The notes under the pieces are model-generated. The model was not told the origin of the DNA. It made no database searches and worked only from the letters and a program-made list of their open reading frames with translations. A program made the translations under genes and the position numbers. A stretch of 64,000 nt of DNA from Trichobilharzia regenti (Eukaryota > Platyhelminthes > Trematoda > Strigeidida > Schistosomatidae). The DNA lies in the NCBI GenBank assembly GCA_944472135.2, contig OX235263.1, positions 13,313,517 to 13,377,516 of the forward strand, in the 5' to 3' direction. Positions 15,401 through 29,300 of the stretch are shown here, piece by piece; the first letter of the stretch is position 1; each line of letters begins with the position of its first letter.

Positions 15401-18400
15401 TGATAAACCGAAACTAAAAAATAAAACGATTCATATGTTTTAACGGTAGTAACCTACTTAGGACATGTTGTCTTACGCCAGGATTCATTATGCTTCAACG
15501 GTTCATCACCTCGTTTTAAAGCGTTGTCAAGTGGTGGAAGAACAACAGGCAATTGATCTTCAGGCACTGGGACTGGCTGTAAAAGTTAGACAAAAGACAG
15601 AGGAAATGAGACAAGCGTAAAAAAATGATAAGAACAATATAGGAATTAAAACTGGTTCAACATACAACTATGCACAGAAGTGCAGCAGTTCGAGTTGCAT
15701 AACTACACTACACTACTAGACTATTATTTTTTCTCTCTTCATGACCATTTATAATGTCAAGAGGTGATTCTCGTGGGACAAGTGGTTCAGTGGCTGACAC
15801 CCTGGCATTTGAAACGATGAGCCACGGGTTCCAGCCACAGTGAGAACACAGCCACTCACTCACTCACTCGCTGCGGAATACAGGTACATCCACTAGCTGA
15901 CGACCTCCAAATAGGGCGAAACGCGCATCTTGCTGGATCCGACTGCTAGTCACTAACCACCGGCAAGTTTATATTCGTTTTACTTTTCATTCCTTAACGT
16001 TCCAAGTGGAACATAAGGGGCTTCAAGCTAGAGCTATGAAGATTCCGTAGCACTGGCATGCATTCTTACGGGATGGGGTTTGCTGGCCACACACGCCCAA
16101 CCTTCCCTCCTTACCAGTCTTGTTATTGGCTTAGAGAGGTAAAGGAGTGCATCGGCCGGTGGTCGAACCCTGAGCCATCTGCGTGATTAGCGAGCATTCT
16201 AACGTTGTGCTACCGACGTGTATATATTCACCAGTTTATTATTATTATTGCTCCCTTGGGTTCCTAGTGGAACATAGGGCTTCAACTGCACGTCTCCATT
16301 TTCTTCTGTCTTCTGCTATACTTTTCGCCTGCATCCATGTTAATCCATCTTCTTTCAACTCCTCTTCACACGATCTCCTCCATATCACCCTTGGACGTCC
16401 CACACGCCGCTTCCCTTTCGGGTTCCACTCGAGGGCTTGGCGCGCGATGTCACCCAGAGGTCTCCTCAGCGAGTGTCCGATCCATCTCCACTTTCTCCTG
16501 CATATTTGTTGGGCGATTGGTTCTTCCTTTGTTTGTTCCCATAATTCCTTGTTGGTGATTCATTCCGGCCATCTGATCTTCAGTATTGAGCGAAGACAGT
16601 TGTTAATAAAGGTCTGCAGCCTTTTGGAAATATACTTTGTGACCCGCCAAGTTTCTGATCCGTATAGAAGAACTGACTTTACGTTTGTATTGAAAATCCG
16701 AATTTTGTTGTTGCTACTGCATGACGAAGATTCCCAGATTGGTTTCAGGTTGATGAATGTGTGTGTTTCTCGCCTTCCCGATTCTCGCTCGATTTGACAT
16801 CCTCGTCCGTTCCGACTGGCTGTAGTTGAGACAATGCTCCCTAGATAAGTGAATGAAGTAACCTCTTTCAGTTTACTTGAAGCTAAATAATCAGACATCG
16901 TTGATACATTTGCACAGGGAGCCAAGATGTCAACCTGTTCTTTCCCATGACTTAATTTTAAAGCTGCACAGTCGTATTTATATCACTCCCCATAGCACAT
17001 AATTTTAATTAACTTTATTCAATATCACATGTGTATATTAACTGAGCAATTTTTAGTGCCATTTAATGCGTTTTTTCCGTAATACAAATACGATTGTACA
17101 GCTTGAAAATGAAGTCACTGTGAATGGAGAAATATTTCTTCGTTGAACCAAACGGTGTGTTTTTCTAATGAATCAAATCCTTAAATTCCTCCAGTTCACA
17201 GTGATATTTAAACACACAAGTGTGACATATCTCTCCAGCCATTAAAACACACATTCTAAATATCATTAGGCTACTGAAACTTTAACGTTGCAAGACGAAA
17301 GACTCGGTAAAGGAATGTTTATTACTATTGACAATTTGGTATCTCCATATAGCCAAATTATGTACACATCATATTCAACGCATCATCTGCACAGATCTTC
17401 CATTTTGTGTTACTTCTGGCCTTCATTTATGCTGCATACAGGTTATGTAAATGATACTCTCATTATTGGTAATAACAGTAAATCTATTGAAAACTTTATC
17501 ACCCTATATAATCATATTCATCCTAATATTCGAGTAACTTCCGAACTAGAATTGAATAACAAACTCGGTTTCCTGGATATTACTATGACTAGGAGAGATG
17601 ATGGAACGATTCAGTGCTCCATTTTTCATAAACAGATATGCAGTGGACAATATCTTCATTTTACCAGTTTTATTCCAATCCAGTATAAACGTTACCTAGT
17701 GAAATGTTTGTTCTCAAGGGCCCGAAAAATATGCACGAGTGACACACTGATGGATGAGCTTCGACATGTACATTCAGTTTTATTAGCTAATGGTTATCCG
17801 GAAAACTTTATCACTTGTCACAGTAAAGGAAGATTACATCTCGAAAAAACAGTTTCTGTACCAAAAAAAGCTATCTTTATTAAGCTACCATTCAAGAGCG
17901 ACCAGATTATGCAGTTGACAGTTAGCTCAAAGACTTCGGTCAGCCATCAAACGCACATTCTACGCCGCCGCATCTCTTTTTCTCACATGCCGAACATTTT
18001 CGATCCCTGTACCTACGATTAAAGGACGAAATTCTATGGACTCTACTTCAAACTATCTACAAGTTCACCTGCAGCTGCGGTGACACCTATATAGGTAGAA
18101 CCAACAGAATGTTCCAATGTCGTCGAAAAGAACATCTTCCAAAATGGCTACCAAATCATATAGAAAATCTCAATGCGATTAATCTGAATAGAAATCCATC
18201 ATCATCCATTGTCTGTCTGTCTGGATTCAACATAGAACTTGGCACCGAAGTGCAGCAGTTCGAGTTGCCACGTTCCAAATAGCACACAGAGGTAGACAAG
18301 AAGATGAGTGAAGAGAATTAATAGAGTTTGACAAATATAAGAGTGAAACAGAATGGGTAATGGTAGAAAGGAATATGAAAGATTACAGAGATTGAATACA

Positions 18401-26394: not shown

Positions 26395-29300
26395 CAGGTC
26401 TGAAGGTCACGTGCAGGACGCTTGATGTAATCACGAATGTGTTGAACTAAATTCTGAATCTTGACAAAATATTTGTCCTAGTATGGGAGTCATCGGCAGT
26501 ACGCACCCACTGGGGTTCGAGTCCAGAACCTTCCGGTTACAAGGCAAGCTCGTATACCACTCAGCCACTGGGTACCACACAGTCATACACCCGTTGACTG
26601 TGTATTGGTTTTCAGGAGAACCAAACACATCCATCCCTGCCTTTTGCGAGACGAGATCGGCATACAGGACCATCCTGTGGCGCAACCACTCGAGAGCTCT
26701 CTCCCTCGGTGGACTACTCCACACTCCCACACATTATTAGTGTTTCGGTGGCACAGAGGTTAGGACGCTCGCCGACCGCCCACATGGTCTGGGATTCGAC
26801 CCCCGGTGGACGAAGCACTCCTTTACCTCGCTAAGCCAATAGTAAGACTGGTAAAGCGGAAAGGTTGGGTATGAGGCTAGCAACCCCATCCTGTAAAAAT
26901 AAACACCACTGCTACAAGTGTTTCGATGATACAATAAAGCTGCTGCGTGAACATTTTGGAGACCACTCCTCATTATTCAGCATACGTTATCGTTTCCTCA
27001 AGCTGACCATGAATGAAAATGATAATTTTCTTACTCACGTTGGCACAGTCAACCGAGAATGTGAGAGATTTCGACTCAGGTCCTTAACAGATGATCAATT
27101 CAAAGCCCTGATTCTCATATGCAGTCTTCAATCTCCTCGTTACACAGATATCCGAACTCGACTTCTCAATCACCCAGAGAAAAATCCTATGTTAACATTA
27201 CATGACATAGCTGATGAATATCAACGGCTGATTAATTTGCAGAAAGACACACACCTGGTCGAATCAACAACTTCGAGAAGCTCTGATATTCATGGATTAC
27301 GAAAGAGCAAAAATCTCTAATCATCCACTCCTGACCCACCTTCTACTAATGTTTCGCGTAAATCTACACATACTCGTCCAACTTCTCAAATTACTGCAAA
27401 GAAGACCCCACCATCACCATGCTGGCATTGTGGCGCATGGCACTTTGTAAAGTCTTGTCCATACAAAAATCATCGTTGCAGCAAGTGCAAAATCATCGGT
27501 CATAAAAATGGATTTTGCCAGCCCCGCAAACTCAGATATCAACATACAGCGAAAGCTCGACAAACTGTTGGTCCTAAATCCCCAAAAAAGTCAATGAGTC
27601 TAGTCGCAACCTGTCAAGTCACAACACCAGGTATGCGGAAATATCTTGATCTTCAGATTAATGGTCATGATACACGTCTGCAGCTAGATACCGCCTCTGA
27701 TATTACTGTTATATCAGAGAAACTTTGGAATAATATTGGCAGACCACCTGTCACAAATACTTCCCAGACTCTTCTCAGCGCCTGTGGTGGGCGGCTTAAA
27801 CTAATTGATGAAATCAAATGTTCTGTTTCATTCCGCAACATCAAATTCACAGGAATTTGCTACGTCACCAAGAGTGATTTAAATCTTTTGGGACTTGATT
27901 GGTTCGATCGTTTGCATCTGGCTGATGTCCCACCAAATTCGCTATGCAATGCAGTCAAGAAGCATAAAATGTCAGACAATTCCGGATGAAGCCGAAGCCG
28001 CAAAACCAACAGGCAGACAAAGCGATAGACGTCAACAACAAGCTCAACGGTTCCAGATAAACCCCTAAGAAAACACGCTACTAATCATCAATCTTCTCAA
28101 AGGGGAGGTGATATATATCCATATAATATGTGTGTTTGACAGTCTGATATATTTCGCTATGTATATATGGATCGATATTCCATTATAATTAGCCAATCAT
28201 GTTAAGACTGTCTATTGATTTGTTCATTTTGAATATTCGCTCACACACTTGTTCTGACATTCATATATATTTTTGCTCTCACACTCTTGTGTGATATTGA
28301 TTCTCCTTGTGTTTGGAAAATAGAAGTATCATCGCAAACCTAGTGGTCTTCTGATTTCCGTCTTTCTCGCGTCAGAACTATTAAATTCTCGACCAGTACA
28401 TAACAGTTATATAAAAGCTGATATGAAATACGTGACATATATTGACATCGTAATGTATGATAAACACAACGTAAGTCACTAGACGTTATATCTGGTCTAG
28501 ATCGATAAACGTATCAATCACATAAGAATAACCAATCAAACTGATATAAAAACATTATAACGTCAGTAGACAAACATATTTCTACTTTTGAAATATGAAA
28601 AATATCCATGTGACATAAATTATTAAGAGCACATTGAGGTCAGCAAAAAATGTTCTTTTATGTAACTACAATTCAAAGCTTAACAGTTATTATTTAACTG
28701 GTGGATGGTGACTAGCAGTGGAATCCAGGATGCGCATTTCGTCCCATTTGTGACTCGTCATCTGGATGCAACTGCATTTCTCAGTGAGTGATGATGTTCC
28801 CACCGAGGCTGGAAACCAGTACCCATAGTTTCAAACGCCAAAGCGTTATCCACTAGATCACCAGTCCCAAATAGGACGAAATGCGCATCCTGGATTCCAT
28901 TGCTAGTCACCACCCACCAATTAAATACTAACTAAGTGCCCAGACATTGTCGAAGCATCTGCACCGACATGTCAACTATGTCAGCTACAAAAACAGCTAT
29001 TTTAAGTTTGTTTCTATGCTTTTCCCTGTTCACACTTGTAATCCGTTTAGAATAACCATTTTACAATTATATTCTAATCCTGTGTAATTTTTTGTTTCAA
29101 TGCCTCTTGTAATCTATATTCATACCTCCTAACTAACATTTCAAGTTGAAAATTTTGACTTCAATTTGTTTCCATGCTCATTTTGTTCACACCTGTAATT
29201 CGTTCTATCCCTGCGTTTCTAAGCCTCTTGTAATTCATGTCTGTCTGTCTGTTTTCGATATAGAACTTTGCACAAATGTGCGGAAGTTCAAGTCGCCACA

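What the first reader, a model, noticed from the sequence alone, without database searches (positions are those of the whole stretch)
15760..28925. Several tRNA-headed SINE families carry hammerhead ribozymes whose loop-less stem III is a covarying palindrome
Seen: in S1 the GAAA box is followed by ATGCGCAT or ACGCGCAT, in S2 by ACCTAGGT (or one-mismatch ACCTAGAT), in S3 by ACAGCTGT. Each is (nearly) self-complementary without a loop and is followed by a base suitable for cleavage. Stem I arms also differ but stay paired (ATCCAG/CTGGAT, CCTTG/CAAGG, GTACTG/CAGTAC). Established: schistosome Smalpha elements carry hammerheads with a minimal stem III that favour dimeric cleavage. Inferred: S2 and S3 are independent families with the same architecture; a palindromic stem III implies action as dimer, tandem transcript or circle, as in retrozymes. 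Whether S2 and S3 are already described is unknown to me.
Basis: partly seen in the sequence, partly recalled or inferred. Interest (0 to 1): 0.88.

Follow-up and report, generated by a model that had tools for sequence, protein, structure and literature searches.

The report
Hammerhead repeats integrating as inverted pairs
Three abundant families of small repeats in a blood-fluke-like genome carry palindromic hammerhead ribozyme motifs as reported, and they often sit in the DNA as head-to-head double copies that look like single insertions, just as Penelope-type retroelements of the same genome do, which points to Penelope machinery as their mover.

Summary
Observation confirmed, with corrections. 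S1 (Smalpha-like), S2 and S3 are real, abundant repeat families (7,603, 1,162 and 12,478 genome matches to one 21-27-base signature each; reversed-pattern controls 0). Typical copies have an intact type I hammerhead core and a loop-less stem III palindrome: ATGCGCAT, ACCTAGGT, ACAGCTGT. Pairing is kept by two-sided changes BETWEEN families; within a family copies mostly just decay. S1 and S2 share a tRNA-box-to-ribozyme stretch; S3 shares only the ribozyme core. The S3 palindromes lie outside the given interval. "tRNA-headed" has weak support for S3 only.

The larger finding was not in the report. Many copies are head-to-head inverted pairs that look like one insertion: 58 head-to-head against 1 tail-to-tail abutting segments; outer-flank words of at least 9 bp shared in 27 of 53 pairs against 6 of 1,036 mismatched flanks; 55 of 55 inner junctions different. 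Usually one arm ends just past the ribozyme and the other carries an extra 3' tail. Penelope-like elements of the same genome show the same signature; a tRNA-type SINE without ribozyme hardly does. Best reading: hammerhead retrozymes mobilised by Penelope machinery from a circular or multimeric RNA. Untested: cleavage, circles, trans-mobilisation.

The parts
15758..15961 (+). S1 copy (unit 173-358), degraded hammerhead 15891-15935 with stem III ACGCGCAT
20430..20926 (.). S2 head-to-head inverted pair: minus arm 20430-20725 (ends at site A), plus arm 20720-20926 (ends at site B), shared flank word TATGGACAAC
20599..20643 (-). S2 hammerhead, stem III ACCTAGGT; core, stems II and III intact, five of six stem I pairs
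   Evidence: Rfam Hammerhead_1 36.2 bits
20849..20893 (+). S2 hammerhead of the plus arm, stem III ACCTAGAT
   Evidence: Rfam HH9 match spans 20837-20910
21177..21387 (+). S1 copy (unit 163-361), decayed
24945..25487 (.). S3 inverted pair (minus 24945-25029, plus 25058-25487); shared flank word AAGATATAATT lies 10-19 bp off the arm ends, so the duplication is uncertain
28687..28976 (.). S1 head-to-head inverted pair (minus arm 28687-28861, plus arm 28860-28976); no flank duplication recognised
28723..28767 (-). S1 hammerhead, stem III ATGCGCAT, first core base A instead of C
   Evidence: Rfam Hammerhead_1 51.5 bits
28857..28895 (+). S1 hammerhead lacking 6 nt of stem I and core, stem III ATGCGCAT
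   Evidence: Rfam Hammerhead_1 39.6 bits
7824..8528 (.). S2 head-to-head inverted pair, shared flank word TACAATCTTTCTG (13 bp); outside the given interval
8739..9042 (.). S3 head-to-head inverted pair, shared flank word AATCTGTTT (9 bp); plus arm carries GAAACAGCTGTC at 8955
40366..40582 (.). S3 inverted pair, decayed; plus-arm hammerhead 40536-40581; no flank duplication recognised
34029..35276 (+). Penelope-like element fragment (ORF 34029-35219; homology to other copies stops at 35276), candidate relative of the mobilising machinery
21893..22585 (-). second Penelope-like ORF fragment (no Pfam hit of its own)
17270..18022 (+). third Penelope-like ORF fragment (no Pfam hit of its own)

Best explanation
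S1, S2 and S3 are non-autonomous hammerhead retroelements of the metazoan retrozyme kind, with units of about 330, 345 and 394 bp. Their type I hammerhead has a palindromic 8-nt stem III (two pairs plus a self-complementary tetramer), so two ribozymes in one multimer, or two RNAs, can form a double hammerhead with a continuous 8-bp stem III (predicted). RNA exists as multimers or ligated circles (inferred from arms that run uncut through the cleavage site and from segments longer than one unit). The RNA is copied into a new site by Penelope-type reverse transcriptase and GIY-YIG endonuclease supplied in trans (inferred). Both cut target ends prime cDNA, one at site B just 3' of the ribozyme, the other at site A further 3' (inferred). 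The two cDNAs are joined in the middle, often at microhomology, leaving a head-to-head inverted dimer between target duplications of about 9-14 bp (inverted structure, duplications and the two end classes shown; priming order inferred).
For: Orientation: abutting (60 bp or less) same-family segments in held DNA, 58 head-to-head, 1 tail-to-tail, 2 tandem outside the L069 array (3 head-to-head entries are duplicate loci, 55 remain). Genome lists (first 100 places each, neighbours under 1 kb): S1 16 head-to-head / 0 tail-to-tail / 2 same-strand; S3 10/0/16, of which 12 are steps of one array (recounted in 96); S2 5/0/1 (by eye). One event: outer-flank words of at least 9 bp in 27 of 53 pairs against 6 of 1,036 mismatched flanks. 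End rule: of 40 pairs with both ends classifiable 38 are A|B and 2 B|B; 15 more pairs have an unclassified end. De novo: 55 of 55 junctions distinct; arm alignments overlap by 1-15 nt in 32 of 55. Same source: arms of one insertion share 31-37% of minor variants, arms of different insertions 13-15% (14 S3, 9 S1, 16 S2 pairs usable). Template: 91 of 110 arms cross the cleavage site; 19 segments exceed one unit, up to 670 nt. Penelope: 3'-end signature 2,181 places, 19/0/0 under 1 kb and 26/0/0 under 2.1 kb among 100 listed; pairs in L051 and L072 have 12-bp duplications and an extra tail on one arm only; 16 of 23 aligned proteins match RVT_1 and 13 of 23 GIY-YIG. Control tRNA-type SINE S4: 1/0/1 among 100 listed, 0 pairs among 32 segments. 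Precedent: head-to-head pLTRs, 8-10 bp duplications and a tail on one pLTR in rotifer Penelope (PMC3846280, passages).
Against: No 3' end shared with the Penelope family tested was found for S1 or S3 (172 and 39 of 300 shuffles as good); S2 shows only a hint (5 of 300). S1 and S2 tails (B to A) are about 110-140 nt against about 20-40 in S3 and 37 in Penelope. End classes were defined after seeing the ends. 26 of 53 pairs show no shared flank word of 9 bp or more. Arm identity within S1 pairs is not clearly above that between insertions (139 of 2,000 random draws as high; S3 28, S2 6). An RTE-like fragment (18383-19315) also gave 1 head-to-head pair in 20 segments, and the Penelope control of that call only 1 in 40, many of which are S4 hits inside the query. 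In loci not fetched for the family in question 13 paired insertions stand against 34 single segments, so pairing is common, not universal. My typed S1 and S2 units (329, 343 nt) are 2-5 nt shorter than observed spacings (331, 348), and some 'longer than a unit' segments exceed it only slightly. The window Penelope ORFs hit no Pfam family themselves. No RNA or enzyme data.
Confidence: 0.72

Rival explanations
1. Ordinary tRNA-derived SINEs mobilised by a LINE (for example an RTE-type element, present at 9949-13047), with head-to-head pairs produced by classical twin priming.
For: RTE-like RT plus endonuclease ORF in the window; an RTE-like fragment gave 1 head-to-head pair in 20 segments; S3 has a weak tRNA match directly 5' of the hammerhead; twin priming is known for L1 (recalled).
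Against: The non-ribozyme tRNA-type SINE S4 shows 1 head-to-head pair among the 100 places listed and 0 pairs among 32 segments. The two arms overlap in element coordinates, which classical twin priming on one monomer does not give; arms extend upstream of the tRNA-like part and some segments exceed one unit. Penelope copies share the signature.
Confidence: 0.15
2. Penelope-type machinery, but the inverted structure comes from self-priming of an antisense template rather than from two target ends priming two cDNAs (the interpretation favoured for rotifer Penelope in PMC3846280, passage).
For: Published for Penelope; gives head-to-head pairs too.
Against: Self-priming should leave arms that start at nearly the same element position; only 4 of 55 pairs start within 30 nt of each other, median difference 101 nt. 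The two different outer end classes per pair fit two primers better.
Confidence: 0.08
3. The inverted pair is itself the mobile unit: a hairpin-type element transcribed and copied as a whole.
For: Pairs are frequent and often flanked by duplications.
Against: All 55 deduplicated pairs have different inner junctions, and single-arm copies are common.
Confidence: 0.04
4. Pairs arise after insertion by recombination, inverted duplication, or two independent insertions into a hotspot.
For: Arms of one pair are on average only 86-92% identical, and half the pairs show no clear duplication.
Against: 31 head-to-head against 0 tail-to-tail neighbours in the S1-S3 genome lists, one duplication around the whole pair in about half, one A-type and one B-type end in 38 of 40 classifiable pairs, shared minor variants within pairs.
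Confidence: 0.04
5. S1-S3 are solo pseudo-LTRs or deletion derivatives of Penelope elements themselves, not a separate element class.
For: Same insertion signature; in L006/L083 a Penelope body lies inside an S3 arm between unit positions about 216 and 219.
Against: The few Penelope copies whose 3' ends were read end without S1-S3 sequence, and tails are not shared. The L006 case is equally a nested insertion.
Confidence: 0.2

Closest known systems
Smalpha / Sjalpha hammerhead SINE-like elements of schistosomes (incl. W36.2 of PMC8490949)
   Same: S1 has the type I hammerhead with short stem III and two same-strand neighbours at 331 bp; likeness to Smalpha is recalled, no Smalpha sequence was held.
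   Different: Head-to-head pairs with two end classes were not described in the passages and section read; S2 and S3 could not be compared letter by letter with W25.2-W27.2.
Metazoan non-LTR retrozymes (PMC7229834, PMC7761336)
   Same: Type I hammerheads in 150-450 bp units, dispersed and tandem; dimeric action; helix III of two pairs plus tetraloop; Penelope elements proposed as movers.
   Different: The word 'inverted' occurs 0 times in PMC7229834 and once, in a reference title, in PMC7761336; circles were not tested here.
Endonuclease-bearing Penelope elements (Adineta vaga, PMC3846280, passages)
   Same: Head-to-head inverted terminal repeats, 8-10 bp target duplications, optional tail on one of the inverted repeats.
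   Different: No coding part was seen in S1-S3, and they do not share the 3' sequence of the Penelope family tested; that paper favours self-priming on an antisense template.
Minimal Penelope hammerheads acting as dimers (Luense et al. 2017, known here only through citation and recall)
   Same: Very short stem III, thought to need dimers.
   Different: S1-S3 have flanking sequence that can extend stem I past an internal loop (by eye) and a 6-7 nt loop II, as full type I hammerheads do.
Rfam Hammerhead_HH9 (RF02275)
   Same: S2 copies in the window match at 40.0 and 33.9 bits.
   Different: Below the HH9 gathering score of 52; a consensus-like S2 copy is reported as Hammerhead_1.

Membership tests
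Type I hammerhead ribozyme (Rfam RF00163) | Core CUGANGA / GAAA, three stems, open stem I, cleavage-site H | tested here: met
   S1 69.5 bits, S2 45.3, S3 54.1, cutoff 34; descriptor hits
Type I hammerhead ribozyme (Rfam RF00163) | Self-cleavage activity | not testable with these tools
   no RNA experiment possible
Dimer-acting hammerhead with palindromic stem III | Self-complementary stem III allowing a double hammerhead | tested here: met
   palindromes in typical copies of three families; predicted homodimer -30.9/-34.0/-29.1 against two monomers -20.0/-26.6/-25.0 kcal/mol
Metazoan non-LTR retrozyme | 150-450 bp units with type I hammerhead, dispersed and in tandem | tested here: met
   394-bp array for S3; same-strand spacings of 331 bp (S1, twice) and 348 bp (S2, once), positions only
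Metazoan non-LTR retrozyme | Circular RNA of unit length | not testable with these tools
   only indirect: segments longer than one unit, arms across the cleavage site
Penelope-type integration | Head-to-head inverted copies within one short target duplication | tested here: met
   duplication recognised in 27 of 53 pairs
Penelope-type integration | Extra tail on one of the two arms | tested here: met
   38 of 40 classifiable pairs A|B, 15 unclassifiable (classes set after inspection); two Penelope pairs
Penelope element proper (pLTR) | Terminal sequence shared with an autonomous Penelope element | tested here: inconclusive
   no shared 3' end for S1 and S3, weak hint for S2; one nested or chimeric case; few Penelope copies held
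tRNA-derived SINE | tRNA-related 5' part with pol III boxes | tested here: inconclusive
   S3 21.6 bits against cutoff 29; S1 and S2 not reported as tRNA, box-like words by eye only; segments extend upstream of it
LINE-dependent SINE | 3' tail shared with a LINE | not tested
   no LINE 3' ends were collected
Smalpha | Sequence homology to S. mansoni Smalpha along the element | not tested
   no Smalpha sequence held; likeness is recalled

The most novel reading that the evidence does not exclude
The palindromic stem III has a second job: it holds two hammerhead RNAs (or two units of one multimer) together as a dimer, and that paired RNA supplies both templates for a two-sided Penelope-type integration, so the ribozyme's dimerisation is what makes the head-to-head double insertions. 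S1-S3 would then be a retroelement class, partly tRNA-headed, that is mobilised by Penelope rather than LINE machinery and inserted as RNA dimers.
Probability: 0.12. Interest if true: 0.85.

Novelty: new variant of a known kind. Interest (0 to 1): 0.62.

Why it matters
Which enzyme moves animal hammerhead retrozymes is an open question: the published proposal of Penelope elements rests on shared ribozymes, tandem copies and co-occurrence (PMC7229834, PMC7761336, passages). The insertion scars described here are a direct, countable test that can be applied to any genome with such repeats. They also offer a reason why these hammerhead repeats come as inverted pairs: integration itself would make them, and such pairs, if transcribed, could be sources of double-stranded RNA. 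Three families with different letters but the same palindromic stem III fit selection for dimeric ribozymes when a family is founded.

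Tried and rejected
Within-family covariation of stem III: of the 100 S2 places listed with the inner tetramer left open, 72 carry CTAG and 28 differ; of the 100 S1 places with six bases left open, 75 carry TGCGCA and 25 differ; by eye none of the 53 restores a full palindrome by a two-sided change. One such change (S2 ACTTAAGT) appears in the held-copy tally. So the shuffle statistics mainly reflect three families, not many independent events; its alignment was 15 typed variants chosen from 46 descriptor hits, and S1 and S3 loci had been fetched with queries that included stem III. 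Rfam-best S1 loci favour the wobble form ATGCGCGT.

The hammerhead-like stretch at 39407-39431 (non-palindromic stem III) looked by eye like an old S1 relative, was not found by BLAST against the other window repeats, and was not pursued. ARAGORN found no tRNA in the window or five loci. A PDB sequence search with the Penelope ORF gave nothing. tblastn with the Penelope relatives also hit the RTE-like ORF (10774-11289), so those hits alone do not prove Penelope. The 23 proteins are 21 chosen from the 120 listed plus two window ORFs. The L006/L083 S3-Penelope-S3 arrangement was first taken as an autonomous S3-flanked Penelope, then set aside: the Penelope part sits inside an S3 arm, so a nested insertion explains it. 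The best protein neighbour (Trichobilharzia szidati, 69% over 78% of the window ORF) suggests a schistosomatid-like fluke; the species was not identified.

Papers: PMC7229834 (outline with abstract, passages), PMC8490949 (passages, section 11), PMC3846280, PMC7761336, PMC6155905 (passages); others only in search listings. Ferbeyre 1998 and Cervera 2014 are not held; Luense 2017 was not seen. Nine searches listed no paper that I recognised by title or abstract start as describing head-to-head insertions of hammerhead retrozymes; the listed papers were not all opened, and the library lacks most subscription journals.

Full report
Checking the observation. Rfam finds four type I hammerheads above threshold in the window and others below it. 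The bare CTGATGA...GAAA motif is only modestly above chance in this window (8 against 2.5 expected; 1 of 100 shuffles reaches 8). What makes the case is the genome. The window lies in a 954-Mb assembly of 548 contigs. One signature per family matches 7,603 (S1), 1,162 (S2) and 12,478 (S3) places, with 0 matches to each reversed pattern. A descriptor that left stem III pairing free gave 46 structured hammerheads in the DNA then held, which fall by sequence into these three families, with typical forms ATCCAG-CTGACGA-GTCC..GGAC-GAAA-TGCGCAT-C-CTGGAT, GCCTTG-CTGAYGA-GTGC..GCAC-GAAA-CCTAGGT-C-CAAGGC and GTACTG-CTGARGA-GTCC..GGAC-GAAA-CAGCTGT-C-CAGTAC. S1 and S3 loci had been fetched with queries that favour these letters; S2 loci were fetched by whole-element similarity.

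Stem III. In typical copies of each family the eight bases from the last A of GAAA are self-complementary. Counted on 15 distinct variants, stem III pairs in 96.7% of cells and three of its four pairs change on both sides; sliding the partners drops whole-structure pairing to 21-35%, but the number of two-sided pairs (9 of 14) is not above column shuffles (142 of 500). These are three family states, not many events: of 100 S2 and 100 S1 places listed with stem III open, 72 and 75 carry the family form and by eye none of the rest is a restored palindrome; the held copies hold one. The innermost pair joins adjacent bases and can only form between two molecules or units. Folding agrees: none of the three cores takes the plain hammerhead as its minimum-energy monomer fold, whereas the homodimer of each takes a double hammerhead with continuous stem III, at -30.9, -34.0 and -29.1 kcal/mol against -20.0, -26.6 and -25.0 for two monomers. 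Dimeric action of short-stem-III hammerheads is established for newt and axolotl (PMC6155905 and PMC7229834, passages).

Relations. S1 and S2 share a stretch from the tRNA-box region through the ribozyme (local score 45, maximum of 50 shuffles 26); S3 shares about 27-29 nt of ribozyme core with each. S3 carries a tRNA-like part that abuts the hammerhead exactly (21.6 bits, cutoff 29); S1 and S2 have A/B-box-like words by eye but no tRNA match.

Insertion structure. Aligning the held DNA to the three units shows that neighbouring same-family segments abut head-to-head: 58 head-to-head, 1 tail-to-tail (L004), 2 tandem outside the L069 array; removing duplicate loci leaves 55 head-to-head pairs. 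The same bias is visible in the genome lists (first 100 places each, neighbours under 1 kb): S1 16 head-to-head, 0 tail-to-tail, 2 same-strand; S3 10, 0 and 16, of which 12 are steps of one 13-copy array (recounted); S2 5, 0 and 1 (by eye). In 27 of 53 testable pairs the two outer flanks share a word of at least 9 bp, against 6 of 1,036 mismatched left/right flanks, so these pairs look like one insertion each; 26 of 53 show no such word. Every one of the 55 inner junctions is different, and in 32 of 55 the arm alignments overlap by 1-15 nt, as microhomology joining would leave. Arms of one insertion share 31-37% of their minor variants, arms of different insertions 13-15%; by mean identity the excess is clear for S2 (6 of 2,000 random draws as high) and S3 (28) but not for S1 (139). 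Outer ends fall at two places per family, B shortly after the ribozyme and A further on; of 40 pairs with both ends classifiable 38 have one of each and 2 have two B ends, while 15 pairs have an unclassified end; the class limits were set after seeing the data. 91 of 110 arms run through the cleavage site, and nineteen segments are longer than one unit, up to 670 nt, some only slightly, so the template was probably a circle or an uncleaved multimer. In loci not fetched for the family concerned there were 13 paired insertions and 34 single segments.

Who moves them. The window holds at least three Penelope-like ORF fragments. Of 23 aligned proteins (21 of the 120 listed relatives and two window ORFs) 16 match RVT_1 and 13 match GIY-YIG; the window ORFs themselves hit no Pfam family. 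The 3' end of one such family matches 2,181 places; of the 100 listed, 19 neighbour pairs under 1 kb are head-to-head and none is tail-to-tail or same-strand. Two pairs in held DNA have 12-bp target duplications and an extra tail on exactly one arm. This is the arrangement described for rotifer Penelope elements (PMC3846280, passages); that paper explains it by self-priming on an antisense template, which fits less well here because only 4 of 55 pairs have arms starting within 30 nt of each other. A tRNA-type SINE without ribozyme (2,530 places) shows 1 head-to-head, 0 tail-to-tail and 1 same-strand pair among 100 places and none among 32 held segments; in the same held-DNA test an RTE-like fragment gave 1 head-to-head pair in 20 segments, three other LINE queries gave none in 2 segments each, and a Penelope query gave 1 in 40, many of them S4 hits. 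Hence the reading that Penelope-type machinery inserts S1-S3. Against it: the Penelope and S1/S3 3' ends are unlike, with only a weak hint for S2, S1 and S2 tails are longer than Penelope's, and no autonomous element bearing S1-S3 ends was found; the one S3-Penelope-S3 arrangement is most simply a nested insertion.

Standing. Shown: families, palindromes, inverted pairs with flank duplications in about half, two end classes, the shared signature with Penelope. Inferred: dimeric cleavage, circular or multimeric template, two-sided priming, Penelope enzymes in trans. Not tested: any RNA or enzyme activity. The hammerhead part is a known kind; published work names Penelope as a likely mover of animal retrozymes from shared ribozymes, tandem copies and co-occurrence (PMC7229834, PMC7761336, passages). 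I recognised no report of the insertion evidence in the listings of nine searches of the held library.

Noticed in passing
window 35780-35950 (also 33913-34116, 7564-7768): A fourth tRNA-type SINE family (S4) without a recognised hammerhead, 2,530 places for one 24-base signature; used as control.
   Followed up: partly
L069:2668-7792: Array of 13.0 S3 units of 394 bp, 99% matches by TRF: a young tandem expansion.
   Followed up: partly
window 20582-20655 (-) and 20837-20910 (+): S2 hammerheads match Rfam Hammerhead_HH9 (40.0 and 33.9 bits, below its cutoff of 52), a possible lead on the origin of that ribozyme.
   Followed up: no
window 9949-13047 (-): Stop-to-stop open frame of 1032 codons with endonuclease and reverse transcriptase domains (RTE-like LINE).
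   Followed up: no
window 26300-26421: Stretch that matches several unrelated microRNA models on both strands, all below their cutoffs; the sequence itself was not looked at.
   Followed up: no
L006:2009-3045 and L083: Old S3 pair with a 5'-truncated Penelope body lodged between S3 unit positions about 216 and 219.
   Followed up: partly
L055 and L068: Same flanks on contigs C3 and C336, suggesting a duplicated or haplotype contig in the assembly.
   Followed up: no
L004:1824-2210: The single tail-to-tail S1 neighbour pair (gap 20 bp), beside S1 head-to-head pairs.
   Followed up: no
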